From the NCBI RefSeq assembly GCF_024708915.1, contig NZ_JANJXQ010000085.1:1-47537 (forward strand): 47,537 bases of DNA, read 5' to 3'. How positions within the stretch are numbered: position 1 is the first letter of the stretch; each line of letters starts with the position of its first letter. This document shows positions 5,995 to 23,041 of the stretch, piece by piece. The notes below the pieces were generated by a model. The model worked only from the letters and a program-made list of their open reading frames with translations, was not told where the DNA came from and searched no databases. The translations under genes were made by a program, and so were the position numbers. The stretch is from Thiobacillus sp. (GTDB lineage: Bacteria > Pseudomonadota > Gammaproteobacteria > Burkholderiales > Thiobacillaceae).

Positions 5995-6930
5995 ATGAAC
6001 AATCATCATATTGAACTGCGCCACCTGCGCCTGCTGCAGGCGGTGGCGGAAACCGGCGGGCTGACGGCCGCCGCCGAGCGCCTGCATCTCACGCAATCGG
6101 CGGTGTCGCACCAGCTGAAGGCACTGGAGGAAGCCCTGGAACTGCCGCTGGTCGAACGCAGCGTGCGCCCGCTGCAGCTCAGCGCCGCCGGACGGCGCCT
6201 GCTGGCGCTGGCGCATGCCGCGCTACCGCTGGCGGACGCCGCACTGCGCGACCTCGCCAAGCTGAAGGACGGCGACGCCGGCGAATTGCGCATCGCGGTG
6301 GAATGCCACACCTGCTACGACTGGCTGATGCCGGCGATGGACCGTTACCGCGATGTCTGGCCGGGGGTGGAACTCGATCTGCTGGGCGGCTTTCAGGCCG
6401 ACCCGGTGGGGCTGCTGCTGGACGGCCGCGCCGACCTCGTCGTCACCTCGGACAGCGTGCCGCGTGCGGGCGTCGCGTATGCGCCGCTGTTCGGCTTCGA
6501 GATGCTGGCGCTGCTGCCGCCGGCGCATCCGCTTGCCGCCAGGAAATGGCTGGCGCCGGGCGACTTCGCCGACCACACCCTGATCACCTACCCGGTGCCG
6601 GAAGACCGGCTCGACCTGATCCGCCGCGTGCTCGCCCCCGTCGGGATCAAGCCGCCGCGCCGCGAGGCGCAGCTGACGGTGGCGATATTGCAACTGGTCG
6701 CCAGCCGCCGCGGGCTGGCCGCACTGCCCGCCTGGGCAGTCGCGCCCTATCTCGAACGCGGCTACGTCGCCGCACGCCGCATCGGCAAGCACGGCCTGTG
6801 GGCCGAGCTTTATGCCGCGGTGCGTGAGGCCGACGCGACACGCGCCTACGTCGCCGATTTCATCGAAACCGTGAAGCGCGACAGCTTCGCCCGGCTGCCG
6901 GGCATCCGCCCGGCCATCGTTGCACCATGA
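5995..6930 (+). CDS. metR: LysR-type regulator MetR
   Basis: Homocysteine-responsive LysR-family activator of met genes, 311 residues. The N-terminal winged helix (about 5-65) contains LTQSAVSHQLKALEEALELP; the effector domain carries the MetR-specific IAVECHTCYDWLMPAMDRY segment (E. coli has ECHSC at the same place) and LPAWAVAPYLERGYV near the end. Start 5995 aligns best with known MetR N-termini; an in-frame ATG at 5977 would add six residues and would overlap the candidate operator. Neither has a good ribosome-binding site. It is divergent from metE, and its stop overlaps the start of a modE-like gene by ATGA, so the metR promoter may also drive that molybdenum regulator, an unusual pairing. 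Confidence 0.93.
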   Translation: MNNHHIELRHLRLLQAVAETGGLTAAAERLHLTQSAVSHQLKALEEALELPLVERSVRPLQLSAAGRRLLALAHAALPLADAALRDLAKLKDGDAGELRIAVECHTCYDWLMPAMDRYRDVWPGVELDLLGGFQADPVGLLLDGRADLVVTSDSVPRAGVAYAPLFGFEMLALLPPAHPLAARKWLAPGDFADHTLITYPVPEDRLDLIRRVLAPVGIKPPRREAQLTVAILQLVASRRGLAALPAWAVAPYLERGYVAARRIGKHGLWAELYAAVREADATRAYVADFIETVKRDSFARLPGIRPAIVAP

Positions 6931-7283
6931 CACCGCGCCTCGCCTTCCGCCTCATTCTCGGCGACGACATCGCGCTCGGCCCCGGCAAGGTGCAACTGCT
7001 CGAAGCCATCCGGGACACCGGTTCGATCGCGGCTGCGGGCCGCAGCTTGGGCATGAGCTACAAGCGTGCCTGGCACCTGGTCGACACCATGAACCACTGC
7101 TTCAAAAGCCCGCTGGTCGAGGCCAGCAAGGGCGGCGCCCGCGGCGGCGGCGCGCAACTGACCGCACGCGCACTGGAAGTCGTCGCCCTGTATCACCGTC
7201 TGGAAGCCCAGGCACGCAAGGCGACCGATGCCGAGATGACCCGCTTGAGCCGGCATCTGGCGAGCCACGCCGATCGATCCTGA
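6927..7283 (+). CDS. modE: ModE-type regulator, HTH domain only
   Basis: DNA-binding regulator of the ModE N-terminal (LysR-like winged-helix) family, 118 residues. The recognition region AAAGRSLGMSYKRAWHLVDT is the hallmark of ModE, followed by a wing with GGARGGGAQLTARALEVV. Full-length ModE (about 260 residues in E. coli) carries two C-terminal Mop/TOBE domains that bind molybdate; here the protein ends after the dimerisation helix, so it has no visible ligand-binding domain. It overlaps metR by ATGA and lies upstream of a ModE-type palindrome at 7372-7403 that heads the modABC operon. It presumably represses or activates those genes. How it senses molybdate is open; the separate di-Mop protein at 8701-9126 is a possible partner. 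Confidence 0.9.
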   Translation: MTPRLAFRLILGDDIALGPGKVQLLEAIRDTGSIAAAGRSLGMSYKRAWHLVDTMNHCFKSPLVEASKGGARGGGAQLTARALEVVALYHRLEAQARKATDAEMTRLSRHLASHADRS

Positions 7284-7371
7284 GCCCTGGAACCTTGCCT
7301 CCGCAGACGTGGCGGGTTTGGCAGTGCGCTCCGGCCACGACCGCTGCCGGGGTCAATGCTTGCAGAGTTCA

Positions 7372-7403
7372 TTTTCGATATGACACAATGAACATATCGA
7401 AAA
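7372..7403. promoter_or_regulatory. ModE-box palindrome upstream of the mod operon
   Basis: A perfect 11-bp inverted repeat, TTTTCGATATG and CATATCGAAAA, separated by 10 bases. The core CGATATG-N10-CATATCG is similar in layout to the E. coli ModE box (two ATCG-TATATA-like halves 6-7 bases apart). It is the most obvious element in the 261-base gap 7284-7544, which otherwise contains no gene I can support. It stands about 140 bases ahead of the fusion gene that opens the operon ending in modC. A weak promoter (TTGCAG 7360-7365, CACAAT 7384-7389) would be overlapped by the box, which fits repression, but this promoter assignment is tentative. Confidence 0.75.
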
Positions 7404-7544: not shown

Positions 7545-8660
7545 ATGAACCGTCTGCATCCCTGCGCCGTGATCCGCGGCACCAACGCCGCGGCCTCGGC
7601 AACGGCGTTGCGTCTGGCCGCGGCAGGCTATGCCGTGCTGCTGGCGGACACGGCCGCGTTCGCCGTCGCCCGGCGCGGCCCGTCTTGCGACGGCACGCTG
7701 TCCGACGGCAGCGTCACGCTGGATGGAGTCGCCTGTCGGCGCGTGGATTCCGCAGCGGACTGGCTGCGCTATGGCGCCCACGACATCGCCCTGACCGCGC
7801 AAGCGCTGGAACAGGTGCTGGCCGATCTTTCACCCGAAGTGCTGGTGGACGCGCGCATGACCAGGCACGGCGTAGCGGATAGCCCGCGCCGCCTCGCACC
7901 CTTGCGGGTCGAACTCGGGCCCGGCTTCGCCGCCGCCGGAAATGCCGGTCTCGTCGTGGAAACGACCCTGGACGATCCGCCGGAAAACCTGAGCGGACAT
8001 AGCCCGGCCCGGGAACCGGTCGGCGCGCCGCAGCCGGCGCGTATCGCCGCCGCCGTGGTCGATGCGCTGCGCCGCCGCCTCGGCCTGCTGCCCTTGGCCC
8101 GCGCCGCCATCGCCGGCGTGCTGCGCAATGCCGAGGCGGGCGAACTGCCGCTGTTCGCGGCCACTCTGGGATTCGATCGGCTGGAATTCAACGCCCTGGT
8201 TGAAACCCTGCAGCCGGGTGCGCGGCTGTCGATGCCCGATCTCGGCGAAGGCTATGCGCTGTGCGCGGTTCAGGAACCCGAGCTGTTCGATCCGCTGGCG
8301 CGAATGTTATGGGAACAGCGCGCGCCGGACCTGTCCGAGCGCCGCGCCCGCTGGCTCGCCCATGCCGTCGCCGCTGCCAGCTTCGGCCACCGGCACCTGT
8401 GGCAGGACCTGGGGCTTGCCGGGCGCGCGGAAACCACGGCCCTGCTGGACCTGCACTTTCCGGCGCTGGCCGCGCGGAATACCGCCGACCTGAAATGGAA
8501 ACGCTATCTCTTTCTCGCGCTGGGCGAGCGGCTGGGTCTGGACGATCTCCAACCACCCGGCTGCGCGGGCTGCGACAGCCATTCGAGCTGCTACGGAGCG
8601 GCGCGGCCTATCCCATCCGGACTGCCGTCCGGCCACCGTCGTCCGGCCCGACCCGCTTGA
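7545..8660 (+). CDS. Fusion of a YqeB/EF2563-like domain with a NifQ-like molybdenum-donor domain
   Basis: A 371-residue protein of two parts. Residues about 5-150 resemble the C-terminal half of E. coli YqeB (EF2563 family, associated with molybdenum hydroxylases): VIRG...ALRLAAAGYAVLLAD is followed by PEVLVDARMTRHG and VELGPGFAAAGNAGLVVET, matching the YqeB order. Residues about 185-350 resemble NifQ, the molybdenum donor for nitrogenase cofactor assembly: HLWQDLGLAGRAE, then ALAARNTADLKWKRYLF, then a cysteine cluster. NifQ has C-x4-C-x2-C-x5-C; here Cys340, Cys343 and Cys349 keep C-x2-C-x5-C but the first cysteine position is Leu335. The N-terminal glycine motif reads RGTNAAAS rather than RGAGDIAS, so its nucleotide site may be altered. 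A GAAGG precedes the ATG at 7545. It opens the mop-modABC operon. Role inferred: molybdenum handling between uptake and cofactor insertion. Confidence 0.8.
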   Translation: MNRLHPCAVIRGTNAAASATALRLAAAGYAVLLADTAAFAVARRGPSCDGTLSDGSVTLDGVACRRVDSAADWLRYGAHDIALTAQALEQVLADLSPEVLVDARMTRHGVADSPRRLAPLRVELGPGFAAAGNAGLVVETTLDDPPENLSGHSPAREPVGAPQPARIAAAVVDALRRRLGLLPLARAAIAGVLRNAEAGELPLFAATLGFDRLEFNALVETLQPGARLSMPDLGEGYALCAVQEPELFDPLARMLWEQRAPDLSERRARWLAHAVAAASFGHRHLWQDLGLAGRAETTALLDLHFPALAARNTADLKWKRYLFLALGERLGLDDLQPPGCAGCDSHSSCYGAARPIPSGLPSGHRRPARPA

Positions 8661-8700: not shown

Positions 8701-9889
<1,189 letters not shown>

Positions 9890-9902: not shown

Positions 9903-10586
9903 ATGGGTTTTTCCGACGCCGACCTCACCGCGATCTGGCTGACCCTGCGAGTGGCGGGCCTGACCACGATCCTGCTGTTCATCGTCGGCACGCCGATCGC
10001 CTGGTGGCTGGCCAGAACCCGCTCGAAGTGGAAAGCGCCCGTCGGCGCGGTGGTGGCGCTGCCGCTGGTGCTGCCGCCCACCGTGCTGGGGTTTTATCTG
10101 CTGGTGACGATGGGGCCGAACGGCCCCATCGGCCACTTGACCCAGTCGCTCGGGCTGGGGGTGCTGCCGTTCACCTTCTGGGGGCTGGTGGTGGCCTCGG
10201 TGCTCTATTCCATGCCCTTCGTGGTGCAGCCGATCCAGAACGCCATCGTAGCCCTGGGCACGCGCCCGCTGGAGGTGGCCGCAACCCTGCGGGCGAGCCC
10301 CTGGGACCGTTTCTGGAGCGTGGTGGTGCCGCTCGCCCGGCCCGGCTTTCTCACCGCCGGCATCCTCGGCTTTACCCATACCGTGGGCGAATTCGGCGTG
10401 GTGCTGATGATCGGCGGCAACATCCCCGGCGTCACCCGCGTGGTTTCGGTGCAGATATACGATCACGTCGAGGCGCTGGAATATGCCGAAGCGCACTGGC
10501 TGGCCGGCAGCATGGTGATTTTCTCGTTTCTGGTGCTGCTGGCGCTTTACACCTTCAACCCCAACAAGCTTCGGGTCACGCCGTGA
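9903..10586 (+). CDS. modB: Molybdate ABC transporter permease ModB
   Basis: Inner-membrane permease of the molybdate importer, 227 residues, with about five or six hydrophobic segments. It starts [20 protein letters not shown], has [19 protein letters not shown] in the second and third helices, and the cytoplasmic EAA loop contacting ModC reads [40 protein letters not shown] follows, characteristic of ModB. No strong Shine-Dalgarno sequence is visible. It is the fourth gene of the operon; the ATPase follows after a 71-base gap. Confidence 0.96.
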
Positions 10587-10657: not shown

Positions 10658-11734
10658 ATGAACGACGACATTCAAGCCGGATTCCTCCTGAAATACCCGG
10701 ACTTCACCCTCGATGTCGATCTCCGCCTGCCCGGCCGCGGCGTCACCGCGCTGTTCGGCCACTCCGGTTCCGGCAAGACCACGCTGCTGCGCTGCATCGC
10801 CGGGCTGGAACGCGCGTCCACCGGGCGCCTCGTCGTCAACGGCGAAGTCTGGCAGGACGCCGGCCGCTTCCTGCCGACGCATCGGCGCCCGCTCGGTTAC
10901 GTGTTTCAGGAAGCCAGCCTGTTTCCGCACCTCACCGCGCGCGGCAATATTGAATACGGCATGAAGCGCGCCGCCGAACCGCTGGACCGCGCCGCGCTCG
11001 ATCATGTCGTCGACTTGCTCGGCATCCGCGCGCTGCTGGATCACAAGTCGGACCAGCTCTCCGGCGGCGAGCGGCAGCGCGTCGCCGTCGCCCGGGCGCT
11101 GGCGGTCAGACCCCGGCTGCTGCTCATGGACGAACCGCTGGCCGCACTCGACCTCAAGCGCAAGCAGGAAATCCTGCCCTACCTGGAACGCCTGCACGAC
11201 GAGTTGGACATCCCGATGCTTTACGTCAGCCACAGCCCGGACGAAGTGGCGCGCCTGGCCGATCACATCGTCGTCCTCTCCGAGGGGCGTGCGCTTGCCC
11301 AGGGCGGACTGGCCGAGACGCTGGCGCGCGTCGACGTCCCCATCCAGCTGGGCGAAGACGTTGGCGCGGTGCTGGAAGGCACGGTCGGCGAACGCGACGC
11401 CGCCTGGCATCTGGCTCGCGTCGATTTCGCCGGCGGCGGCCTGTGGGTGCGCGATACCGGCCTGCCGCCCGGCCGCCGGGTGCGCATCCGCATCCTGGCG
11501 CGCGACGTCAGCCTGTCGCTGACGCATCAGGACGGCACCAGCATCCTCAACCTGCTGCAGGGCACGGTGACCGAAATCGCCGACGACAGCCACCCCGCCC
11601 TGGCCCTGGTCCGGGTCGAGGTCGGCGGCACGCCTGTCGTCGCGCGGGTGACCCGGCGCTCCGCCGCCGCGCTCGCACTGGCGCCCGGCCGGCCGGTCTG
11701 GGTGCAGATCAAGTCGGTGGCGCTGATTGGCTGA
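10658..11734 (+). CDS. modC: Molybdate ABC transporter ATPase ModC
   Basis: ATPase energising molybdate import, 358 residues like E. coli ModC. Walker A is GHSGSGKTTLLR (near residue 35), the signature is LSGGERQRVAVARAL, Walker B LLLMDEPLAALDLKRK, and the H-loop YVSHSPDE. The C-terminal region (about 290-358, SILNLLQGTVTEIADDSH) is a single Mop/TOBE domain that can bind molybdate for trans-inhibition, as expected of ModC. The ATG at 10658 was chosen because the protein then begins MNDDIQAGFLLKYPDFTLDV, matching the family; longer in-frame readings run back through modB in a wrong frame. The start has only a weak ribosome-binding site. Last gene of this operon. Confidence 0.96.
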   Translation: MNDDIQAGFLLKYPDFTLDVDLRLPGRGVTALFGHSGSGKTTLLRCIAGLERASTGRLVVNGEVWQDAGRFLPTHRRPLGYVFQEASLFPHLTARGNIEYGMKRAAEPLDRAALDHVVDLLGIRALLDHKSDQLSGGERQRVAVARALAVRPRLLLMDEPLAALDLKRKQEILPYLERLHDELDIPMLYVSHSPDEVARLADHIVVLSEGRALAQGGLAETLARVDVPIQLGEDVGAVLEGTVGERDAAWHLARVDFAGGGLWVRDTGLPPGRRVRIRILARDVSLSLTHQDGTSILNLLQGTVTEIADDSHPALALVRVEVGGTPVVARVTRRSAAALALAPGRPVWVQIKSVALIG

Positions 11735-11908: not shown

Positions 11909-12304
11909 ATGAAACGTAAAACCGGTTCCGGCCCCAGCAAACCGGCCCACCCGCGACTGCGGGTGCTGTTGGGCGAGCGCATCGCCATCGGCCCCGGCAA
12001 GGCCGCCCTGCTGGAGGCCATTGCCCGTTACGGCTCGATCTCGGCGGCGGCGCGCGCAAACAGCATGTCCTACCGGCGCGCCTGGAATCTGGTCGACACC
12101 ATGAACAAATGCTTCATCACCCCGCTGGTGGTCACCAGCGCGGGGGGGCAGCATGGCGGCGGCGCAAGCCTGACGGATTTGGGGCGCGAGGCCCTGACCA
12201 GTTACCAGGCCATGGAAATCAAGGCGGCACGCGCGGTCGCGCGCGAGTTCGAGGCTTTCCAGCGCTTCCTGGCCGCGCCTGAAAAGCCGCCCGCCGACGA
12301 CTGA
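11909..12304 (+). CDS. modE: Second ModE-type regulator, HTH domain only
   Basis: 131 residues, a paralogue of the product at 6927-7283: LLGERIAIGPGKAALLEAIA and GSISAAARANSMSYRRAW followed by NLVDTMNKCFITPLV match it closely in order and spacing. It has a longer basic N-terminus (MKRKTGSGPSKPAHPRLRV) and, like its paralogue, no molybdate-binding Mop domains. A hairpin separates it from modC, so it may have its own promoter. It lies just upstream of two ModE-like boxes and the TonB/FecCD operon, which it probably controls. Whether the two ModE proteins form heterodimers or split the two operators between them cannot be told from sequence. Confidence 0.9.
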   Translation: MKRKTGSGPSKPAHPRLRVLLGERIAIGPGKAALLEAIARYGSISAAARANSMSYRRAWNLVDTMNKCFITPLVVTSAGGQHGGGASLTDLGREALTSYQAMEIKAARAVAREFEAFQRFLAAPEKPPADD

Positions 12305-12325
12305 TCGCCGGGACGGCCGTTTGGG

Positions 12326-12354
12326 TTGACACGGATCGGGGACATCGATATCGT
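12326..12354 (+). promoter_or_regulatory. Candidate sigma-70 promoter of the TonB/FecCD operon
   Basis: A consensus TTGACA (12326-12331) is followed after 17 bases by TATCGT (12349-12354, four of six matches to TATAAT). The -10 region is overlapped by the ModE-like box at 12352-12375, a layout that would let a bound regulator block RNA polymerase. The transcript would carry a leader of roughly 190-220 bases. Confidence 0.5.
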
Positions 12355-12375
12355 TATATACCGTTGTGCATTACG
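12352..12375. promoter_or_regulatory. ModE-like box A ahead of the TonB/FecCD operon
   Basis: CGTTATA-N10-CATTACG, an imperfect palindrome with the same half-site length and 10-base spacer as the perfect box at 7372-7403. Extended by two bases on the left it reads ATCGTTATATA, which agrees with the E. coli ModE half-site ATCGnTATATA. It overlaps the candidate -10 element. Confidence 0.65.
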
Positions 12376-12429
12376 AAAATGATCGGGCCAGCTCCCATCG
12401 GGCGAAAAACCGTCTTTTTTTTGGCCAGC

Positions 12430-12453
12430 CGATATGCACGCACATACATAACG
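12430..12453. promoter_or_regulatory. ModE-like box B ahead of the TonB/FecCD operon
   Basis: CGATATG-N10-CATAACG, one mismatch from the perfect CGATATG-N10-CATATCG. Its centre is 78 bases downstream of box A. It lies in the transcribed leader if the promoter at 12326 is right, so it could act as a roadblock or as part of a looped complex with box A. A run of eight T (12415-12422) lies between the boxes. Confidence 0.6.
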
Positions 12454-12549
12454 ATTCACGGCTGCGCCTTGGCCTGCATCAACACGGGACCGGCATCGAT
12501 CCGGTGGCACTGTCCATGCCGGGCCGTGCTTCACGAACAGGAGATCAAA

Positions 12550-12588
12550 GTGGAAAACGCGTTTCAGAACGGGGTCGCCCATGTCTGA
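12550..12588 (+). CDS. 12-residue leader ORF overlapping the DUF364 gene start
   Basis: GTG at 12550 is preceded by AGGAG with an ideal 6-base spacing and opens a 12-codon frame, MENAFQNGVAHV, that stops at 12588, 8 bases inside the DUF364 gene (ATG 12581). The DUF364 start itself has only a poor ribosome site, so ribosomes may be loaded here and re-initiate downstream. No homologue is recognised. It could alternatively be fortuitous. Confidence 0.45.
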   Translation: MENAFQNGVAHV

Positions 12589-13456
12589 CTTGCTGCGTGA
12601 AATTTCAGACGAAGTGGCCGCGCGGCTGGGCCCGGCCCAGGATCGGCTGAGCATCGAGCGCGCGGTGCTGGGCCTGTTTTTCGTCGGGGTGAAGCTGAGC
12701 AACGGTGCGGGTGGCGTCTGCGCCACCCCGCTGAAGGGCATTCCACAGGCGGTGTGCTGTCCTAGCTCCGCCCAGGCGATGCCGGCACCCGGCAAACTGC
12801 ACGGCCGCTCCGTCGGCCAGGCGCTGGAGGATTTGCATCGCGGCGGCCAGCTGCGGCGGGCGCTGGCCATCGCCACCCTGAATGCGCTGGTCGAGTCGGT
12901 TTGGCAGCAGGACGGCGTGCCCGACGGCGTCAGCCAGAACGGCCGCGATGCCCTGTCCGCCCTGGACATCCAGCCGCACCACCACGTCGTCCTGGTAGGC
13001 GGGTTCCCGCCGTACATGCGCGAGTTCATACGGACCGAACAGTCGTTCAGGGTCCTCGAACTCGACCCCACGGTACTGAAACCCGAGGAACTCCCCTACT
13101 ACGTCCCCGCCGCGCAGGCGGCGCAGACGATTCCCCATGCCCATGCTCTGGTCGTGACCGGCACCACCCTGATCAACGGCAGCCTCGACGCGCTGCTCGA
13201 TCTGGCCCGCCCCGGCACGCAAATCGCGCTGATCGGCCCCAGCGTGCCGCTGCTGCCGGGCCCCTTCCTCAAGCGCGGCGTCGCGGTGCTGGGCGGGGTG
13301 CGGGTCGGCGACCCGGATGCGCTGCTCGATTGCCTGGCCGAAGGCGGGTCTGGCTACCATTTTTTCGGCAAGTCGGCCGAACGGGTCACCTTGCGGGCTG
13401 CGCCGCCGCGGTCCGGCGGGCTGCCCGATTCGACCTTTTGTTCACGTTTCCACTGA
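12581..13456 (+). CDS. DUF4213/DUF364 family protein, putative metal-chelation enzyme
   Basis: 291-residue cytoplasmic protein of the family whose solved member (Dhaf4260 of Desulfitobacterium) combines an enolase-like N-terminal domain with a Rossmann-like domain and was proposed to act in heavy-metal chelation. Here residues about 5-110 form the DUF4213 part (LGLFFVGVKLSNGAGGVCATPL) and about 120-275 the DUF364 part (HHHVVLVGGFPPYMREFIR, ALVVTGTTLINGSLDALLDL, IALIGPSVPLLP). Cysteines at ACC-like spots (GVCATPL, AVCCPSS) could be ligands. It opens an operon regulated by ModE-like boxes and is followed by a TonB receptor after 25 bases, so a role in processing the imported metal or its chelator is plausible. 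Exact reaction unknown. Confidence 0.85.
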   Translation: MSDLLREISDEVAARLGPAQDRLSIERAVLGLFFVGVKLSNGAGGVCATPLKGIPQAVCCPSSAQAMPAPGKLHGRSVGQALEDLHRGGQLRRALAIATLNALVESVWQQDGVPDGVSQNGRDALSALDIQPHHHVVLVGGFPPYMREFIRTEQSFRVLELDPTVLKPEELPYYVPAAQAAQTIPHAHALVVTGTTLINGSLDALLDLARPGTQIALIGPSVPLLPGPFLKRGVAVLGGVRVGDPDALLDCLAEGGSGYHFFGKSAERVTLRAAPPRSGGLPDSTFCSRFH

Positions 13457-13481
13457 TCCAAACCTTCCCCGGAGTCAACGC

Positions 13482-15479
13482 ATGTCCCTCGCCAAACCGC
13501 GCATCCTGCCCGCCCTGATCGCCAGTCTTCTCACCCCGGGCGTCAGCCTGGCAGACGACCCGGTATTCGACCTCGGCACCATCACCGTCACCGCCAGCCG
13601 CCCGCAGCTTGGCGTCGTCGCGCCGGAGCAGGTCGCTTCCGTGGTCACGCGCGACGATATCCAGACGCACAACCGGGAAACCGTGGGCGACGCCGTCAAC
13701 CTGCTCTCCGGCGTCACGGTTTCGACCAACTCGCGCAACGAGCAGACGGTTTATCTGCGCGGCTACGATCCGCGCCAGGCGCCGCTGTTCATCGACGGCA
13801 TTCCGGTCTATGTGCCGTACGACGGCTACGTCGATTTCGGCCGCTTCGACACCGCCGACCTGGCCGCGATCCAGGTTGCCAAGGGCTTCAGCTCGGTGGC
13901 CTACGGCCCCAACACCCTGGGCGGCGCCATCAACCTCATTTCGCGCAAGCCGCGCAAGGCCTTCGAGGGCGACGTCAGCATCGGCTTCGGCGAGGAAGGC
14001 GCCCGCCGCACCGCGGTCAACCTGGGCAGCAACCAGGGCAGCTGGTACATCCAGGCCGGCGCCGCCTACCGCGAGGCCGACGGCTTCAGCCTGTCCGACG
14101 ACTTCACGCCGACCGCCACCGAAGACGGCGGCCGCCGCGACAACTCCTACTACAAGGACAGCAAGGGGACGCTGAAACTGGGTCTCACCCCCGGCGGCGG
14201 CGACGAATACGCCCTCACCTACACCAAGCAGGACGGCGAGAAGGGACAGCCGCCCTCCACCGTGCCCACCGCGCGCTACTGGCAATGGCCGTACTGGGAC
14301 AAGGAAAGCCTGTATTTCGTCTCGCGCACCGGACTGGGCGCCCACGAAACGCTGAAACTGCGGCTCTACACCGACAAGTTCGACAACGAGGTGAACAGCT
14401 TCACCGACAACACCTACACCACGCTCAAAACCAGCGGCTCCGGCAGCGTCGGCACCGGCCGCAGCATCTACCACGACAAGAGCGTCGGCGGCTCGGTTGA
14501 ACTGGAGTCGCGTCGTTTCAGCGGCCACACCCTGCGCGCGGTGGCCCATTACAAGGTCGACCAGCACGAGGAGCGCGACGGCAATGCCTTGCTCAATGCC
14601 GACTTCGAGGACACCCTGCGCTCGCTGTCGGTGGAGGATGGCATCCAGCTGGGCGACAAGACCCTGCTCTCCATCGGCCTTGCCCACCACGAACTGGCCC
14701 CGGACAAGGTTTTCAAATCCGGCCCCGGCCCGGCCTACGCATTGCCCGACAAGCAAAGCTCGACCGATCCGCAGATCGGCCTGTTCCACGACCTCTCGCC
14801 AACGGCGCGCCTGTACGCCACGGCCGCCGAAAAAACCCGTCTGCCCACGCTCAAGGATCGCTACTCCGCACGCTTGGGCAATTTCATCCCCAACCCTGAT
14901 CTCGGTCCGGAACAGGCGCGCAACTACGAAATCGGCTACCAGGGACAAGCCTGGGCTGGCGCCACGGTCGAGTTCACCGTGTTCTGGAACGACATCCAGG
15001 ACAAGATTCAGGAAGTGCGCCCCAACCCGGCGCTGAATTGCTCGGCGACCAACCAATGCCAGATGCAGAACGTCGGCGAGGCGCGCATCAAAGGCGTCGA
15101 ACTGGGTCTCAAGACCCCGCTGGGCAGTCGCTGGGAAGTGGGCGGCAACGCCACCTTCATGGATCTGGAAAACCGCAGCGATCCCACGGTCAGGCTGACC
15201 GGCATTCCGGAAACCAAGATCATCCTGCACGCACTCTGGCGGCCGGCGGATGCCGTGAGCCTGATCGCCTTCGCCGAGCACGACGGCAGCCGCTGGGCCT
15301 CCAACACGGTCAAGCTGGATGGTTTCACCACCCTCAACCTGAAGGCCGCCTGGCGGCCGATGAAAAACCTGTCCGCCGAGGCCGGCGTGAACAACGTCGG
15401 CGACGAGAACTACGAACTCGACCAGGGTTTCCCCGCCGCCGGACGGATGTGGTTCGCCAACCTGAACTACACCTTCTGA
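13482..15479 (+). CDS. TonB-dependent outer-membrane receptor
   Basis: 665-residue TonB-dependent transporter. A signal peptide (about 1-24, ending GVSLADD) is followed by a TonB-box-like stretch FDLGTITVTASR, the plug domain (about 45-160, with DDIQTHNRETVGDAVNLLSG and VYLRGYDPRQAPLFIDGIPV, then YGPNTLGGAINLISRKP), and a 22-strand barrel ending in the aromatic terminus NLNYTF. The internal start at 13482 was chosen for its CGGAG site and signal peptide. Two cysteines in one predicted loop (LNCSATNQCQ) could pair. It imports a scarce solute too big or rare for porins; with ModE-like boxes upstream and a FecCD-type importer downstream, molybdate, tungstate or a metallophore complex is the inferred cargo. 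Confidence 0.93.
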   Translation: MSLAKPRILPALIASLLTPGVSLADDPVFDLGTITVTASRPQLGVVAPEQVASVVTRDDIQTHNRETVGDAVNLLSGVTVSTNSRNEQTVYLRGYDPRQAPLFIDGIPVYVPYDGYVDFGRFDTADLAAIQVAKGFSSVAYGPNTLGGAINLISRKPRKAFEGDVSIGFGEEGARRTAVNLGSNQGSWYIQAGAAYREADGFSLSDDFTPTATEDGGRRDNSYYKDSKGTLKLGLTPGGGDEYALTYTKQDGEKGQPPSTVPTARYWQWPYWDKESLYFVSRTGLGAHETLKLRLYTDKFDNEVNSFTDNTYTTLKTSGSGSVGTGRSIYHDKSVGGSVELESRRFSGHTLRAVAHYKVDQHEERDGNALLNADFEDTLRSLSVEDGIQLGDKTLLSIGLAHHELAPDKVFKSGPGPAYALPDKQSSTDPQIGLFHDLSPTARLYATAAEKTRLPTLKDRYSARLGNFIPNPDLGPEQARNYEIGYQGQAWAGATVEFTVFWNDIQDKIQEVRPNPALNCSATNQCQMQNVGEARIKGVELGLKTPLGSRWEVGGNATFMDLENRSDPTVRLTGIPETKIILHALWRPADAVSLIAFAEHDGSRWASNTVKLDGFTTLNLKAAWRPMKNLSAEAGVNNVGDENYELDQGFPAAGRMWFANLNYTF

Positions 15480-15512
15480 ACGCGAGGCCGCCATGGCTGG
15501 AGATGCAACGAC

Positions 15513-16526
15513 ATGAAGCGACGCGAATTCCTTGGCGCGCTGGCTGCCCTCTCGACTGCGCCCTGGGCCCACGCCCTGGCCGCGCCCGCCAGCGGCCTGC
15601 ATGTCTTCGGCGCGCCTCCCGCGCCGGAGCGGGTGCACCGGGTATTTGCCGCCGGCGCGCCGGCGGCGGTGCTGGTGCATGCCCTTGCGCCGGACACGCT
15701 GCTGGGCTGGCCCTGGCCGCTCGCCGACGAGGCGCTGGCGCTGCTTGCGCCCGCGGCGCGGGCGCTGCCGATGCTGGGGCGGCTGGCAGGACGCGGCAGC
15801 ACCCTGCCGCTGGAAAAGCTCGTCGCACTCAAGCCCGATCTCATCGTCGACGCCGGCACGGTGGATGCCACCTACCTCTCCACCGCCGAGCGGGTGTGGC
15901 GGCAGACCGGCATTCCCACCGTGCTGGTCGACGGGCGGCTGGCCGACAGCGCCCGCCAGTTGCGTGCGACCGGACGGCTGCTGGGCGTGGCCGAACGCGG
16001 CGAGTGGCTGGCTCGATACGCTGAAACGACGCTCGTCGCCTGCGGCGGCATCGCCGCCCAGCGCCGGCCGCGCGTCTATCTCGCCCGCGCCGCCGACGGT
16101 CTGGAAACGCCGCTGCCCCGTTCGGTCAACGGCGAGTGCATCGAAGCCGCCTGCGGCATCAACGTTGTCCAGGGCGGGGGCGGCAGCCTGGCGCGCATTT
16201 CCCGCGAACAGATCCTCGCCTGGTCGCCCGAGGCTATCGTCACCCAGTATCCGGAATTCCATGCGCTGGCCTTGCGGGATGCTTTCTGGAAACGCCTGCC
16301 CGCCGTGCGCGAAGGCCGCTTGTTGCTGGCGCCTGCGGCGCCTTTCGGCTGGCTCGACGGCCCGCCGAGCGTCAACCGGCTGATCGGCGTGCGCTGGCTG
16401 GCCGCGCGCCTGCACGGCAGCGCCGCCCGCGTCGACTGGATCGAATTCGCCCGCGAATTTCACGCGCTGTTCTACGGCCATGCGCCGACCCGCGAGGAAC
16501 TGGCGCGGCTGCCCGGCCTGGGATGA
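15513..16526 (+). CDS. Periplasmic binding protein of a FecB/BtuF/MolA-type ABC importer
   Basis: 337 residues. The N-terminus MKRREFLGALAALSTAPWAH has a twin-arginine pair followed by F-L, a Tat-like signal, with cleavage near ALAAPA. The mature part has the two lobes of class III binding proteins joined by a long helix: LEKLVALKPDLIVDAGTVDA in lobe one, VWRQTGIPTVLVDGRLADSA leading to the helix, and EQILAWSPEAIVTQYPEF in lobe two. The family binds siderophores, cobalamin, haem and, in Haemophilus MolA, molybdate and tungstate. The stop overlaps the permease gene by ATGA. A Tat route would suit a protein that folds before export, perhaps around a cofactor, but Sec export cannot be excluded. 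Confidence 0.88.
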   Translation: MKRREFLGALAALSTAPWAHALAAPASGLHVFGAPPAPERVHRVFAAGAPAAVLVHALAPDTLLGWPWPLADEALALLAPAARALPMLGRLAGRGSTLPLEKLVALKPDLIVDAGTVDATYLSTAERVWRQTGIPTVLVDGRLADSARQLRATGRLLGVAERGEWLARYAETTLVACGGIAAQRRPRVYLARAADGLETPLPRSVNGECIEAACGINVVQGGGGSLARISREQILAWSPEAIVTQYPEFHALALRDAFWKRLPAVREGRLLLAPAAPFGWLDGPPSVNRLIGVRWLAARLHGSAARVDWIEFAREFHALFYGHAPTREELARLPGLG

Positions 16527-17527
16527 ATCTGGTTCGCCACAGCGTCGGCATGCGCTTCGCCATCCTCTCGGCGCCCCTCGTCGCGGCGCTGCTGGCGGCC
16601 TTCGCCTTCGGGCCGTACCCGTTGTCGCCGCAACAAGTTCTGGCCGCCGTGTGGGCCGGGCCGGCGGCCGACAGCGACGCCGCCACCGTGGTCTGGCAGT
16701 TGCGCCTGCCGCGCATCGCCGCCGGGCTGCTGGTCGGCGCGGCGCTTTCCGCCGCCGGGGCGGCCTATCAGGGCATGTTCAGGAACCCGCTGGTTTCGCC
16801 CGACATCCTTGGCGTGTCCGCCGGCGCCGGGCTGGGCGCGGCGCTCGCCATCTACCTCGGCCTGCCGCTGGCGGCGGTGCAGGCCATCGCCTTCGTCGGC
16901 GGACTGCTGGCGGTGGCCGCGGTGGTTTTCGTCGCCGGCCGGGTGCGCCGCCACGACCCGGTGCTGGTGCTGGTGCTCGCCGGCGTCGCCGTGGGCACAC
17001 TGTTTTCCGCCGGCATTTCGCTGGTCAAGGTGCTGGCCGATCCCACCGTGCAACTGCCCGCCATCACCTTCTGGCTGCTGGGCGGACTCAACGCCGTCGC
17101 GGCCGGCGACCTCTGGGTTGCCGCGCCCCTCGTCGTCGCGGGTCTGGTCCCCATGCTGCTGCTGCGCTGGCGCGTCAACCTTCTGTCGCTGTCGGACGAG
17201 GAAGCCGCCGCGCTGGGCGTGAACGTGGCGCGCCTGCGCGGCATTCTGATCGTCTCCGCCACGCTGATGACGGCGGCCGCCGTCTCCATCGCTGGCATCG
17301 TCGGCTGGATCGGCCTGGTGGTGCCCCATGCCGCGCGGCTGCTGGTGGGGCCGGAGTTCTCCCGGCTGTTGCCGGCCTCCCTGCTGCTGGGCGGCGGCTT
17401 CCTCGTCGCCGCCGACACCCTGGCCCGCTCGGCGGCGGCCATCGAACTGCCGCTGGGCATTCTCACGGCGCTGGTCGGCGCGCCGGTGTTCCTGTGGCTG
17501 CTGGCGCGGACGGGGCGGAGCGGATGA
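16523..17527 (+). CDS. FecCD/BtuC/MolB-type ABC permease
   Basis: 334-residue inner-membrane permease of the FecCD family with about ten helices. Family landmarks include LRLPRIAAGLLVGAALSAAG, AYQGMFRNPLVSPDILGVSA and VGWIGLVVPHAARLLVGPEF, the last being the cytoplasmic coupling region that docks on the ATPase. Such permeases carry iron-siderophores, cobalamin, haem or, for Haemophilus MolB, molybdate. It overlaps the binding-protein gene upstream and the ATPase gene downstream by four bases each, so the three products form one importer. Confidence 0.94.
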   Translation: MNLVRHSVGMRFAILSAPLVAALLAAFAFGPYPLSPQQVLAAVWAGPAADSDAATVVWQLRLPRIAAGLLVGAALSAAGAAYQGMFRNPLVSPDILGVSAGAGLGAALAIYLGLPLAAVQAIAFVGGLLAVAAVVFVAGRVRRHDPVLVLVLAGVAVGTLFSAGISLVKVLADPTVQLPAITFWLLGGLNAVAAGDLWVAAPLVVAGLVPMLLLRWRVNLLSLSDEEAAALGVNVARLRGILIVSATLMTAAAVSIAGIVGWIGLVVPHAARLLVGPEFSRLLPASLLLGGGFLVAADTLARSAAAIELPLGILTALVGAPVFLWLLARTGRSG

Positions 17528-18282
17528 ATGTGCTCGAAGCCCGCGGCCTCGCCATCGGCTACCGCCACCGGCCGGTGGGCGAGGACATCGATCTCGTCCT
17601 CGATGCGGGCGAGGTGCTGTGTCTGCTCGGCCCCAACGGCGGCGGCAAGACCACGCTGTTTCGCACCCTGCTGGGCATCCTGCCGCCGCTTTCCGGCACG
17701 GTGCGGGTCGCCGGCCGCGCACTTGCCGACTGGTCGCGGCAGGCGCTGGCGACGCAGCTCGCTTACGTGCCGCAGTCCCACGCCGGGCTGTTCGCCTTCA
17801 CCGTCGAGGAGGTGGTGCTGATGGGCCGCACCGCGCGCCTGCCGCGTTTTTCCACGCCGTCGGTGCGCGACCGTGAGATGAGTCAAGCCTGCCTCGCGCG
17901 CCTCGGCATCGGTCATCTGGCTGACCGCGTCTACACGGAAATCTCCGGCGGCGAGCGGCAGCTGGCGCTGATCGCCCGCGCCCTGGCCCAGGAGGCGGCG
18001 GTCCTGATCCTCGACGAGCCCACCGCCAGCCTCGACTTCGGCAACCAGTTGCGGGTGCTGAAGGAGATCGATGCGCTCAAGCGCCAGGGATTGGCGATCC
18101 TGATGTCCACCCACCAGCCCGAACACGCCCTGCGCGCGGCCGACCGCATCGCCCTGCTCAAGGCCGGCCGCATCGTCGGCCAGGGCCCGCGTGCCCTGGC
18201 GACGGCGGATCGGCTCGCCGAACTCTACGGCGCCGATGCCGGCGATGTGGCGCGCAGCCTGCCGCAACTGGCGGGAGCGTGA
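17524..18282 (+). CDS. ABC ATPase of the FecE/BtuD/MolC type
   Basis: 252-residue ATPase of the importer. Walker A is GPNGGGKTTLFRTL (near residue 36), the Q-loop region LAYVPQSHAGLFAF, the signature ISGGERQLALIARAL, Walker B AAVLILDEPTASLDF, and the switch histidine MSTHQPEHAL. Length and the short C-terminus without a TOBE/Mop domain separate it from ModC and match the FecE/BtuD group. Start overlaps the permease stop by ATGA; its stop overlaps the next gene's ATG by one base. Confidence 0.94.
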   Translation: MNVLEARGLAIGYRHRPVGEDIDLVLDAGEVLCLLGPNGGGKTTLFRTLLGILPPLSGTVRVAGRALADWSRQALATQLAYVPQSHAGLFAFTVEEVVLMGRTARLPRFSTPSVRDREMSQACLARLGIGHLADRVYTEISGGERQLALIARALAQEAAVLILDEPTASLDFGNQLRVLKEIDALKRQGLAILMSTHQPEHALRAADRIALLKAGRIVGQGPRALATADRLAELYGADAGDVARSLPQLAGA

Positions 18283-18821
18283 TGAGGCGCGCCGTACCCG
18301 CAGCGGAAACGCTGGCCGAATCCCTGCGCGACGCGGCGCAGCCTCGCCTGGTTCTGCTCACCGGCGGGCGCGGGTCGAGCAAAACCCGCTGGTGCGGCGA
18401 ACTGGCGCAGGCCGCCCGCGACGCCGGGTTGAGCCTGGCGGGGGTGATCTCGCCGCCGGTGTATGCGGCGGGCAAGATCGCCATCGACCTGCTGGCCGTC
18501 GCCACCGGCGAACGCCGGCGGCTGGCCGAGCGGCCGCCGCCGGGCGAACCCGGCACCGCCGGCCTGGGCTGGCGCTTCGACCTCGCGGTGCTGGCCTGGG
18601 GCAACGCGATGCTGGACAATACTTCCGCTTGCGATCTGCTGCTGATCGACGAACTCGGGCCACTGGAATTCCGCGGCGAGGGCGGCTTTCTCGCCGGCTT
18701 CGCGGCCATCGAAGCGCGCCGTTATCGCCTGGCCGTCGTCGTGGTTCGCCCCGAATTGCTGGACACCGCCCGCGCCCGCTGGCCATGGTTCTCGCTGATT
18801 TACGACAAGGACATTTCATGA
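18282..18821 (+). CDS. THEP1-like nucleoside-triphosphatase
   Basis: 179 residues. LVLLTGGRGSSKTRWCGEL is a P-loop in which the usual Gly before Lys is Ser, LLLIDELGPLEFRGEGGF matches the Walker B and following motif of the THEP1 (NTPase_1) family, and LAGVISPPVYAAGKIAIDLL is the family's strand-loop after the P-loop. THEP1 enzymes hydrolyse nucleoside triphosphates in vitro; their cellular job is not settled. The start can be ATG 18282 or the GTG one codon earlier; GGGAG precedes both. Its place within an importer operon suggests an energy-dependent step after uptake, such as loading or releasing the metal. That role is inference. Confidence 0.8.
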   Translation: MRRAVPAAETLAESLRDAAQPRLVLLTGGRGSSKTRWCGELAQAARDAGLSLAGVISPPVYAAGKIAIDLLAVATGERRRLAERPPPGEPGTAGLGWRFDLAVLAWGNAMLDNTSACDLLLIDELGPLEFRGEGGFLAGFAAIEARRYRLAVVVVRPELLDTARARWPWFSLIYDKDIS

Positions 18822-19252
18822 ACCGCCCGCATCGCCTGCTGCCGCCTGCACCGCGTTTCTTCCCCGGCCAGCGCTGGCTCAATATCGGCCTGCGCTGCGC
18901 CCACCTTGTCGGCATCGCGGGGATGAGCGGCGGCTACCTGTTCGACCTGCCCGAGGCGCAATGGCGACCGTACTGGCACCTGACTCTGGGCACCGGCGGC
19001 TTGCTGATGCTGCTCTATGTCTGGACCGATTTCGCCTGGCTGCTGAAACTGAAAGGCCAGGCCATCCTGCTCAAGCTGGCGCTGCTCGCCCTGGCCCACT
19101 TTTATTTTCCGGACTGGCGCGACGCGGCCTTCATCGGGGTCATCGTCCTGTCCGGATTTTTCGCCCACGCGCCGGATCGGCTGCGTAGTTACGCCTGGGG
19201 CCGCACGGTGCGTCCGTGCGGTTCGGCCCGAATCGGGGAGACCCTGAAATGA
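18818..19252 (+). CDS. Small integral membrane protein of the TonB/FecCD operon
   Basis: 144 residues with four predicted membrane segments: about 22-42 (IGLRCAHLVGIAGMSGGYLF), 53-75 (LTLGTGGLLMLLYVWTDFAW), 82-97 (ILLKLALLALAHFYF) and 103-120 (AAFIGVIVLSGFFAHAP). The order resembles small haem-less members of b-type-cytochrome-like membrane families, but no functional motif is certain. The ATG overlaps the THEP1-like stop by ATGA and its own stop overlaps the methyltransferase start by ATGA, so it belongs to the same translation unit. I do not recognise the family. Confidence 0.8.
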   Translation: MNRPHRLLPPAPRFFPGQRWLNIGLRCAHLVGIAGMSGGYLFDLPEAQWRPYWHLTLGTGGLLMLLYVWTDFAWLLKLKGQAILLKLALLALAHFYFPDWRDAAFIGVIVLSGFFAHAPDRLRSYAWGRTVRPCGSARIGETLK

Positions 19253-20046
19253 ACATTTCCGACATCGACTTCGGCCAGCTCTATCGCGAGCACATGGCCG
19301 CCGCCGGCGGGCGCGAGAAGCCGCCGGAGGAATGGGACGCCCGCGCCGCCTCGATGAATGCGCACGCGGGCGAAAGCGGCTACGTGTCCGAATTCGTCCG
19401 CCGCATGGACCTGTCCGGCTGCGCGACCCTGCTCGATGTCGGCTGCGGCACCGGCGCCATCGGCCTCGCCCTGGCCGACCGCATGACGCGGGTAGTTGGC
19501 CTCGACTACAGCCGCGGCATGCTCGACGCCATGCTGGACAACGCCGCTCAGCGCGGCCTGACCAACGTCGAAGCGATCCGCTGCGCCTGGGAGGACGACT
19601 GGAGCGGCGTGCCCGCCTGCGACATCGTCGTGGCCTCGCGCTCCACCACGGTGATGGACATGGCCGATGCGCTGGCAAAACTGGATGCCAAGGCGAAACG
19701 ACGGGTCTATCTCACCAGCATGGTTGGCGGCCGTTTCATCGATGCCGAGGTGGCCGGGCTGCTCGGCCGCTCGCGGCCGCCGCTGCCGGACTACATCTAC
19801 ATCCTCAATATCCTCTACCGCATGGGGCGGCGCCCCCGCCTCGACTACATCGAAAGCGACAACCGCCTGGCCGGCACGGAGGATCTCGACGCATTCCTGC
19901 GCAAAGTGGCCTTCTCGGTGGGCGAATTGTCCGAGGACGAACGGGCACGCCTGGCCGACTGGCATGCCGCCAATCCGCAACGCGCCCGCCAGGGCGGCGC
20001 GCCCTTCCACTGGGCATTCGTGTCGTGGGACACGCAGCCCGCCTAA
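19249..20046 (+). CDS. Class I SAM-dependent methyltransferase closing the TonB/FecCD operon
   Basis: 265 residues. The SAM-binding motif I is TLLDVGCGTGAIGLALADR (near 62-80), followed by VVGLDYSRGMLDAML (motif II region) and PACDIVVASRSTTVMD (motif III region). The N-terminal helix (DFGQLYREHMAAAGGREKPP) and C-terminal half (about 170-265) are not diagnostic. Start 19249 overlaps the preceding gene's stop by ATGA; a longer reading from 19216 would add 11 residues. In the importer context it might methylate an imported chelator, a metal or a metabolite; the substrate is unknown. It ends 7 bases from the convergent DUF202 gene. Confidence 0.88.
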   Translation: MNISDIDFGQLYREHMAAAGGREKPPEEWDARAASMNAHAGESGYVSEFVRRMDLSGCATLLDVGCGTGAIGLALADRMTRVVGLDYSRGMLDAMLDNAAQRGLTNVEAIRCAWEDDWSGVPACDIVVASRSTTVMDMADALAKLDAKAKRRVYLTSMVGGRFIDAEVAGLLGRSRPPLPDYIYILNILYRMGRRPRLDYIESDNRLAGTEDLDAFLRKVAFSVGELSEDERARLADWHAANPQRARQGGAPFHWAFVSWDTQPA

Positions 20047-22483: not shown

Positions 22484-23041
22484 ATGGCCAAGACCTCATC
22501 CGCAACCCAACAACCCTTCCTGACCGACATCAAGACCCTGCGCGCCCGCGCGCGCAAGCACATCGAGGACGGCGCGGTCACCGCGGGCTACCAGGCCGAC
22601 CGCGCCGTCGTGATCAAGCTACTGAACGAGGCGCTGGCCACCGAGCTGGTCTGCATCCTGCGTTACAAGCGGCATTACTTCATGGCCGGGGGCATCAATG
22701 CCGACACGGTGGCGCAGGAATTCCTCCAGCACGCCACCGAAGAACAGGGCCATGCCGACCTGATCGCCACGCGCATCGTGCAGCTGAATGGCGAGCCCAA
22801 CTTCAGCCCCGACGGGCTGGCGATGCGCTCGCACGCCGAGTACGTCGAAGGCGGCAGCCTGATCGAGATGATCAAGGAAGACCTGGTTGCCGAACGCATC
22901 GCGATCGAGAGCTACGGCGAGATGATCCGTTACATCGGCGACAAGGACATCACCACCGGGCGGATGCTGGAGACCATCCTGGCGATGGAAGAGGAGCACG
23001 CCAACGATTTGTCGAGCCTGCTGGAGGATCTCAAGCGCTGA
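22484..23041 (+). CDS. Ferritin-like / bacterioferritin-type protein
   Basis: 185 residues, four-helix bundle of the ferritin-like superfamily. Di-iron ligands are visible as NEALATELVCILRYKRHYF (Glu), ATEEQGHADLIATRIV (Glu-x2-His), VAERIAIESYGEMIRYI (Glu) and AMEEEHANDLSSLL (Glu-x2-His). A good AAGGA precedes the ATG. It resembles bacterial Dps/bacterioferritin-type proteins without the Met haem ligand of classical Bfr being assignable. It probably stores or detoxifies iron, fitting its place beside oxyR and a ZIP transporter. It ends 11 bases from the convergent glucoamylase gene. Confidence 0.88.
   Translation: MAKTSSATQQPFLTDIKTLRARARKHIEDGAVTAGYQADRAVVIKLLNEALATELVCILRYKRHYFMAGGINADTVAQEFLQHATEEQGHADLIATRIVQLNGEPNFSPDGLAMRSHAEYVEGGSLIEMIKEDLVAERIAIESYGEMIRYIGDKDITTGRMLETILAMEEEHANDLSSLLEDLKR

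What the first reader, a model, noticed from the sequence alone, without database searches (positions are those of the whole stretch)
12305..20046. ModE-controlled TonB/FecCD uptake operon: candidate outer-membrane molybdenum (or tungsten) acquisition system
Seen: an unbroken plus-strand run of eight genes, six of whose junctions overlap by 1-4 bases, encoding DUF364, TonB receptor, Tat-like binding protein, FecCD permease, ATPase, THEP1-like NTPase, membrane protein and methyltransferase. Two ModE-like boxes and an HTH-only ModE gene lie directly upstream, and modABC is next door. Known: FecCD-type MolABC of Haemophilus carries molybdate/tungstate, and TonB receptors normally serve siderophores or cobalamin. 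Inferred: this is a dedicated TonB-dependent route for molybdenum, tungsten or a metallophore complex, with three enzymes of unknown function that may strip, modify or load the cargo.
Basis: partly seen in the sequence, partly recalled or inferred. Interest (0 to 1): 0.87.

Follow-up and report, generated by a model that had tools for sequence, protein, structure and literature searches.

The report
Molybdenum-starvation TonB uptake operon
A bacterial gene cluster switched by molybdenum appears to import molybdenum (or tungsten) through an energised outer-membrane receptor, a route usually associated with iron and vitamin B12, and many relatives of the receptor in other bacteria carry the same molybdenum switch.

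Summary
An eight-gene operon (DUF364, TonB receptor, Tat-like binding protein, FecCD, ATPase, NTPase, membrane protein, methyltransferase) follows modABC and an HTH-only modE; a predicted promoter overlaps the first of two ModE boxes.

A ModE box (at least 14/16) lies within 500 bp upstream in 27 of 37 receptor loci, window included, against 0 of 30 siderophore receptors from the same genomes. Molybdenum genes are within 9 kb in 33 of 37. No Rfam RNA was found in the window or 35 of the 36 other loci, and no Fur match of 14/19.

I read it as a ModE-repressed, TonB-dependent molybdenum/tungsten acquisition system, probably for a chelated form processed inside the cell. Cargo is not shown. Receptors paired with a di-haem protein track nitrogenase (10 of 13 genomes); the rest, including the window's nearest relatives, do not (0 of 13). 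[quoted passage not shown] my searches found no print record of the family, its regulatory signature or its alternative partners.

The parts
6927..7284 (+). second HTH-only ModE-like gene (no TOBE domain)
   Evidence: translation; matched by ModE queries
7376..7399 (+). ModE box, no mismatch to CGWTAT-N12-ATAWCG, before the NifQ-fusion/mod operon
7545..8660 (+). YqeB-like N-terminus fused to NifQ (ORF open from 7443)
   Evidence: PF04891, 113 bits; TIGR03309, 59.5 bits, below its cut-off of 220
8701..9126 (+). di-TOBE molybdate-binding (Mop/ModG-like) protein
9140..9889 (+). modA
   Evidence: sequence; homologues matched beside mod genes; no family scan run on it
9903..10586 (+). modB
   Evidence: sequence; no family scan run on it
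10658..11734 (+). modC
   Evidence: no family scan run on it
11909..12304 (+). HTH-only ModE
   Evidence: (TIGR00637 82 bits, cut-off 98.5)
12326..12354 (+). sigma-70-like promoter overlapping the first ModE box
   Evidence: 10 of 12 matches; mean 0.1 in shuffles of the region
12352..12375 (+). ModE box 1 (one mismatch)
12430..12453 (+). ModE box 2 (no mismatch)
12581..13456 (+). DUF4213-DUF364 protein, head of the operon
13482..15479 (+). TonB-dependent receptor, signal peptide then TonB-box-like DLGTITVTA
   Evidence: the two motifs are read from the sequence
15513..16526 (+). periplasmic binding protein (PF01497), twin-arginine-like signal
16523..17527 (+). FecCD-type permease
   Evidence: 294.8 bits
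17524..18282 (+). ABC ATPase
   Evidence: PF00005 106.1 bits
18279..18821 (+). P-loop NTPase (NTPase_1/THEP1-like), possible counterpart of DUF2478 of related operons
   Evidence: PF03266 37.3 bits, cut-off 23.9; DUF2478 19.1, cut-off 22.3
18818..19252 (+). small membrane protein, no Pfam family
19249..20046 (+). class I SAM methyltransferase
   Evidence: copies 52-64% identical in the closer related operons

Best explanation
A ModE-repressed, TonB-dependent import system for molybdenum (or tungsten), most likely in chelated form. Shown: the genes, the ModE boxes, and the recurrence of both the boxes and neighbouring molybdenum genes across a receptor clade. Inferred: when cell molybdenum falls, ModE leaves the two boxes (the first overlaps a predicted -10) and the operon is transcribed. 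The receptor pulls the scarce metal complex across the outer membrane, the binding protein and FecCD/ATPase bring it into the cytoplasm, and DUF364, the methyltransferase and the NTPase dismantle or modify the ligand. The freed metal goes to the TOBE, NifQ-type and cofactor proteins encoded alongside. In relatives without FecCD near the receptor, a secreted redox-type protein usually stands beside the receptor (21 of 37 loci) and ModA/B is within 9 kb in 14 of those 21, suggesting that the same cargo is opened in the periplasm there.
For: ModE box in 27 of 37 receptor loci (window included) against 0 of 30 siderophore receptors of the same genomes, Fisher 1e-10. In the 26 loci taken by receptor similarity, 19 reach 14/16 and 24 reach 12/16. 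Molybdenum genes: 22 of 35 five-kb receptor loci against 0 of 30 controls; 33 of 37 when up to 9 kb is allowed (no control at that range). The receptors form one clade against the controls, SH-aLRT 98. Window promoter overlaps box 1. Among 80 DUF364 loci from bacteria and archaea, FecCD lies within 6 kb in 45, MoeA in 21, any molybdenum gene in 33 (no control run). Binding protein: MolA is the third-best solved relative by profile, 141 bits, above YiuA (101), haem binders (74 or less) and BtuF (65). Receptors with a di-haem partner occur in genomes with nitrogenase in 10 of 13 cases, others in 0 of 13 (post hoc, related genomes), which fits a molybdenum cargo for that branch.
Confidence: 0.75

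Rival explanations
1. The receptor and transporter carry free molybdate or tungstate, a high-affinity relative of MolABC with an added outer-membrane receptor; the extra enzymes act on the molybdenum cofactor rather than on the cargo.
For: Binding protein related to MolA; MoeA near DUF364 in 21 of 80 loci, which fits cofactor metabolism; ModA/B near the receptor in 20 of 37 loci.
Against: Molybdate is small enough for porins (general knowledge) and modABC is already present in the window; the characterised FecCD molybdate importer MolBC-A is low-affinity; recurring methyltransferase (11 of 37) and redox proteins (26 of 37) have no obvious use for a bare oxyanion.
Confidence: 0.25
2. A siderophore (iron) uptake system borrowed into the ModE regulon because iron is also needed, for example for nitrogenase.
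For: Nearest solved receptor is the catecholate/colicin receptor Cir (84 bits); binding-protein fold tied with iron-catecholate YiuA; A. vinelandii raises three TonB receptor operons when Mo and V are absent (PMC9542535); the di-haem branch tracks nitrogenase, and in four genomes its receptor lies 20-29 kb from nifH.
Against: No Fur match of 14/19 or better in 37 loci, against 3 of 30 controls (difference not significant, p 0.08); below NCBIfam siderophore, haem and B12 receptor cut-offs; ModE, NifQ, ModA/B and DUF2478 neighbours; genomes with the FecCD or cytochrome types and no di-haem type have no NifH (0 of 13).
Confidence: 0.12
3. A cobalamin or other corrinoid uptake operon placed by chance next to mod genes.
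For: Permease and ATPase score best against B12/corrinoid models, below cut-off (234 of 461 and 198.8 of 537 bits).
Against: No cobalamin riboswitch in the window or in 35 five-kb receptor loci; receptor far below the B12-receptor cut-off (135.7 against 599.7); ModE boxes recur.
Confidence: 0.03

Closest known systems
MolABC of Haemophilus influenzae (HI1470-1472)
   Same: FecCD-type (type II) permease, ATPase and PF01497 binding protein; sequence relationship of the binding protein to MolA.
   Different: MolBC-A is described as low-affinity and the word TonB does not occur in the paper (PMC4031551, passages); here there are a receptor, DUF364, NTPase and methyltransferase.
Azotobacter chroococcum cluster Achr_39320-39290
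   Different: One sentence of annotation in a genome paper; no regulatory or comparative evidence in the passages read. I did not have that genome, so homology of its receptor to this one is untested.
DUF364 family (Dhaf4260, 3l5o; PH1506, 3npg)
   Different: Function unknown there; the word TonB does not occur in the text.
MorABC of Rhodobacter capsulatus
   Same: Second, Mo-repressed molybdate-type transporter besides ModABC (PMC6925177, passages).
   Different: ModABC-like, not FecCD; neither TonB nor outer membrane occurs in the text; its deletion did not affect Mo-nitrogenase activity.
VnfA1-dependent TonB receptor operons of Azotobacter vinelandii (Avin_30860, 39890, 47130)
   Same: TonB receptors with ABC genes, activated only when Mo and V are absent (PMC9542535, passages).
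   Different: Activated by VnfA1; ModE control of these operons is not reported in the passages read.

Membership tests
TonB-dependent receptors | Plug and beta-barrel domains | tested here: met
   PF07715 73.1 bits, PF00593 138.9 bits, both above cut-off
TonB siderophore, haem or B12 receptor subfamilies | score above the NCBIfam curated cut-off | tested here: not met
   TIGR01783 162.5 (cut-off 223.5), TIGR01785 152.3 (316.85), TIGR01779 135.7 (599.7)
MolABC-type molybdate importer | FecCD permease with its ATPase and PF01497 binding protein | tested here: met
MolABC-type molybdate importer | binding protein closest to MolA | tested here: inconclusive
   Third by sequence after 4pag and 4ovk, whose ligands I do not know; by fold tied with YiuA and CeuE
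MolABC-type molybdate importer | binds molybdate or tungstate | not testable with these tools
   needs purified protein
ModE regulon | ModE box at the promoter | tested here: met
   comparative
ModE regulon | expression changes with molybdate and modE | not testable with these tools
   needs transcription data
ModE (full repressor) | HTH domain plus di-TOBE molybdate-sensing domain | tested here: not met
   The gene at 11909 has only the HTH; the one at 6927 is as short (no family scan run); a separate di-TOBE gene lies between them
DUF364 / DUF4213 | both Pfam domains and the enolase-Rossmann fold | tested here: met
THEP1 / NTPase_1 | PF03266 above cut-off | tested here: met
   37.3 against 23.9; the NCBIfam NTPase equivalog is not met, 30.7 against 156
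DUF2478 | PF10649 above cut-off | tested here: not met
   19.1 against 22.3; the related-operon protein L013:5685-6281 does meet it, 165.9

The most novel reading that the evidence does not exclude
A widespread family of outer-membrane receptors dedicated to an organic molybdenum or tungsten complex (a molybdophore or pterin-like chelate, perhaps made by other organisms). Alternative ways of opening it have evolved: import by FecCD and cytoplasmic opening by DUF364, methyltransferase and NTPase; or opening in the periplasm by a di-haem protein (the branch of nitrogen fixers) or a cytochrome/Oxidored_molyb protein (with NifQ-like partners outside nitrogen fixation), followed by ModABC. Without the outer-membrane step, the DUF364-FecCD-MoeA version would serve Gram-positive bacteria and archaea.
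Probability: 0.35. Interest if true: 0.9.

Novelty: new variant of a known kind. Interest (0 to 1): 0.74.

Why it matters
How molybdenum bound to organic ligands crosses the outer membrane is, to my knowledge, an open question even in Azotobacter (recalled; the review PMC10669500 discusses TonB uptake for iron in the passages I read). A receptor clade carrying the molybdenum switch, in genomes with and without nitrogenase, gives definite genes to delete and test. It would extend TonB-dependent transport to group 6 metals, give DUF364 and DUF2478-type proteins a pathway, and suggest a ligand to look for.

Tried and rejected

Row accounting. The 37 loci are the window, 26 loci (28 hits, two genomes found twice), and 10 of the 12 other places; two fragments in G009 were left out. 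The 14 genomes were reached through 14 of the 80 DUF364 loci, so those 10 loci are biased towards molybdenum; so is L120 among the 26 (G005, the centre of two of the searches; 18 of the other 25 have a box of 14/16 or better). Several loci are near-copies (L128, L129, L131; L126, L127). Loci without a box of 13/16 or better within 500 bp: L118, L125, L132, L137, L141, L142; L136 and L137 have a box of 15 before an OMT gene ahead of the receptor. Controls: the 30 loci that one search returned, of 98 places listed, from 19 of 26 genomes; control start codons were guessed by a signal-peptide score. Random-stretch controls include the boxes themselves; its shuffles keep single-base composition only.
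Full report
What is there. The window is 67% G+C and its receptor is 96% identical to one from a Thiobacillus metagenome assembly. It carries a molybdenum island of about 13 kb on the plus strand: an HTH-only ModE, a ModE box without mismatch, a YqeB-like/NifQ fusion, a di-TOBE protein, modABC and a second HTH-only ModE; then two ModE boxes and the eight-gene operon of the finding. Five of the seven junctions overlap by 1-4 bases, so co-translation is likely. A good sigma-70 match has its -10 on the first box, the expected geometry for repression.

Is the ModE link more than chance? In the window alone it is moderately strong: three boxes at one mismatch or less, all before the two molybdenum operons, 0.095 expected, though with two mismatches allowed three hits are unremarkable. 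The comparative test is much stronger. I collected receptor homologues from whole genomes (7 of 399, 5 of 187 and 16 of 297 genomes at E 1e-150 or better; 11 of 14 genomes at 1e-60) and took 36 loci of 12-20 kb. With the window, 27 of 37 have a box of at least 14/16 within 500 bp upstream (31 at 13, 34 at 12), against 2.2% of random 500-bp stretches of the same loci and 0.2% of single-base shuffles. The sharper control, siderophore receptors from the same genomes, gives 0 of 30 at every threshold from 12. Fur matches of 14/19 or more: 0 of 37 and 3 of 30. The 37 form one clade against the controls, as expected from how they were chosen.

What surrounds the receptor. In loci of about 5 kb, molybdenum-linked genes occur in 22 of 35 receptor loci and 0 of 30 controls. 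Within 9 kb they occur in 33 of 37: ModE homologues 26, ModA/B 20, DUF2478 12, NifQ 8 (no control at that range). The partner varies. FecCD is within 7 kb in 14 of 37; a redox-type protein (DHOR di-haem protein with an SBP_bac_6-type binding protein, or an Oxidored_molyb protein mostly fused to cytochrome c; families checked on a few copies) within 6 kb in 26 of 37; one or the other in 35 of 37; redox without FecCD in 21, of which 14 have ModA/B. Two of the five Oxidored_molyb proteins printed lack the Cys of the other three, so they need not be molybdoenzymes. This alternation is why I favour a cargo that must be opened, either in the cytoplasm or in the periplasm. It is inference.

Nitrogenase. 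The clade as a whole does not track NifH (10 of 26 against 15 of 42). On recounting, the type of partner does: genomes with a di-haem-type receptor have NifH in 10 of 13, the others in 0 of 13, and in G005, G724, G703 and G456 the di-haem-type receptor lies 20-29 kb from nifH on the same contig. Six genomes with NifQ-like genes near the receptor (G665, G707, G737, G661, G345, G249) have no NifH above cut-off. The pattern is post hoc and the genomes are related and may be incomplete, but it fits one metal served in two physiologies. The window has no nif gene besides the NifQ fusion among those scanned, and its whole genome is not held.

DUF364 beyond this clade. FecCD is within 6 kb in 45 of 80, MoeA in 21, any molybdenum gene in 33; of the 45 with FecCD 26 have a molybdenum gene, of the 35 without 7. 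A group of these pairs an O-methyltransferase with DUF364, and some methanogen members carry a radical-SAM gene fused to a binding protein; their cargo may differ. The 2010 structure paper already saw metal-transport context and proposed a flavin- or pterin-like compound (PMC2954201, passages).

What it is not. It is not tied to isochorismate-derived catechols and shows no riboswitch at Rfam's thresholds. Molybdate control in vivo is untested.

Novelty. Searches and 59 of an open-licence library showed me no paper on a ModE-regulated TonB receptor family ('ModE regulon' with 'TonB': 0 papers); most of the papers listed were seen as listings only. The A. [quoted passage not shown] Most subscription papers are not in that library. 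I therefore call this a new variant of a known kind: a TonB/FecCD importer moved to molybdenum, with an older passing suggestion of the idea and new comparative evidence.

Noticed in passing
L125-L134, L140, L141, L151: The receptors with an SBP_bac_6-type binding protein and di-haem DHOR partner are the ones found in genomes with nitrogenase: 10 of 13 genomes against 0 of 13 for the other types; four such receptors lie 20-29 kb from nifH. Families were checked by Pfam on L131 only.
   Followed up: partly
L119, L121, L122, L124, L135, L138: NifQ-like genes near the receptor in six genomes (G665, G707, G737, G661, G345, G249), none of which has NifH above cut-off. Only L121 was confirmed by Pfam; the others rest on tblastn with the fused query. 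Suggests a molybdenum role for NifQ outside nitrogenase, if the genomes are complete.
   Followed up: partly
window:7545-8660 (+): NifQ fused behind a YqeB-like N-terminal part (PF04891 113 bits; TIGR03309 59.5 bits, below its cut-off), under a ModE box without mismatch.
   Followed up: partly
window:6927-7284, 8701-9126, 11909-12304: Two HTH-only ModE genes with a separate di-TOBE gene between them: possibly a ModE whose sensor is a separate protein.
   Followed up: no
L119-L124, L135, L145, L146: Cytochrome c fused to an Oxidored_molyb domain after the receptor (Pfam-checked in L119, L121, L146 and L001, the same genome as L145); L001 and L146 copies lack the Cys seen in L119 and L121.
   Followed up: partly
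L029:1468-3342; also L030, L049, L075: Radical SAM protein (AmmeMemoRadiSam-like, below cut-off) fused to a PF01497 binding-protein domain in methanogen loci with DUF364, O-methyltransferase and FecCD; families checked on L029 only.
   Followed up: no
window:21538-22455 and 22484-23041 (+): A ZIP-family transporter and a ferritin-like protein shortly downstream of the operon.
   Followed up: no
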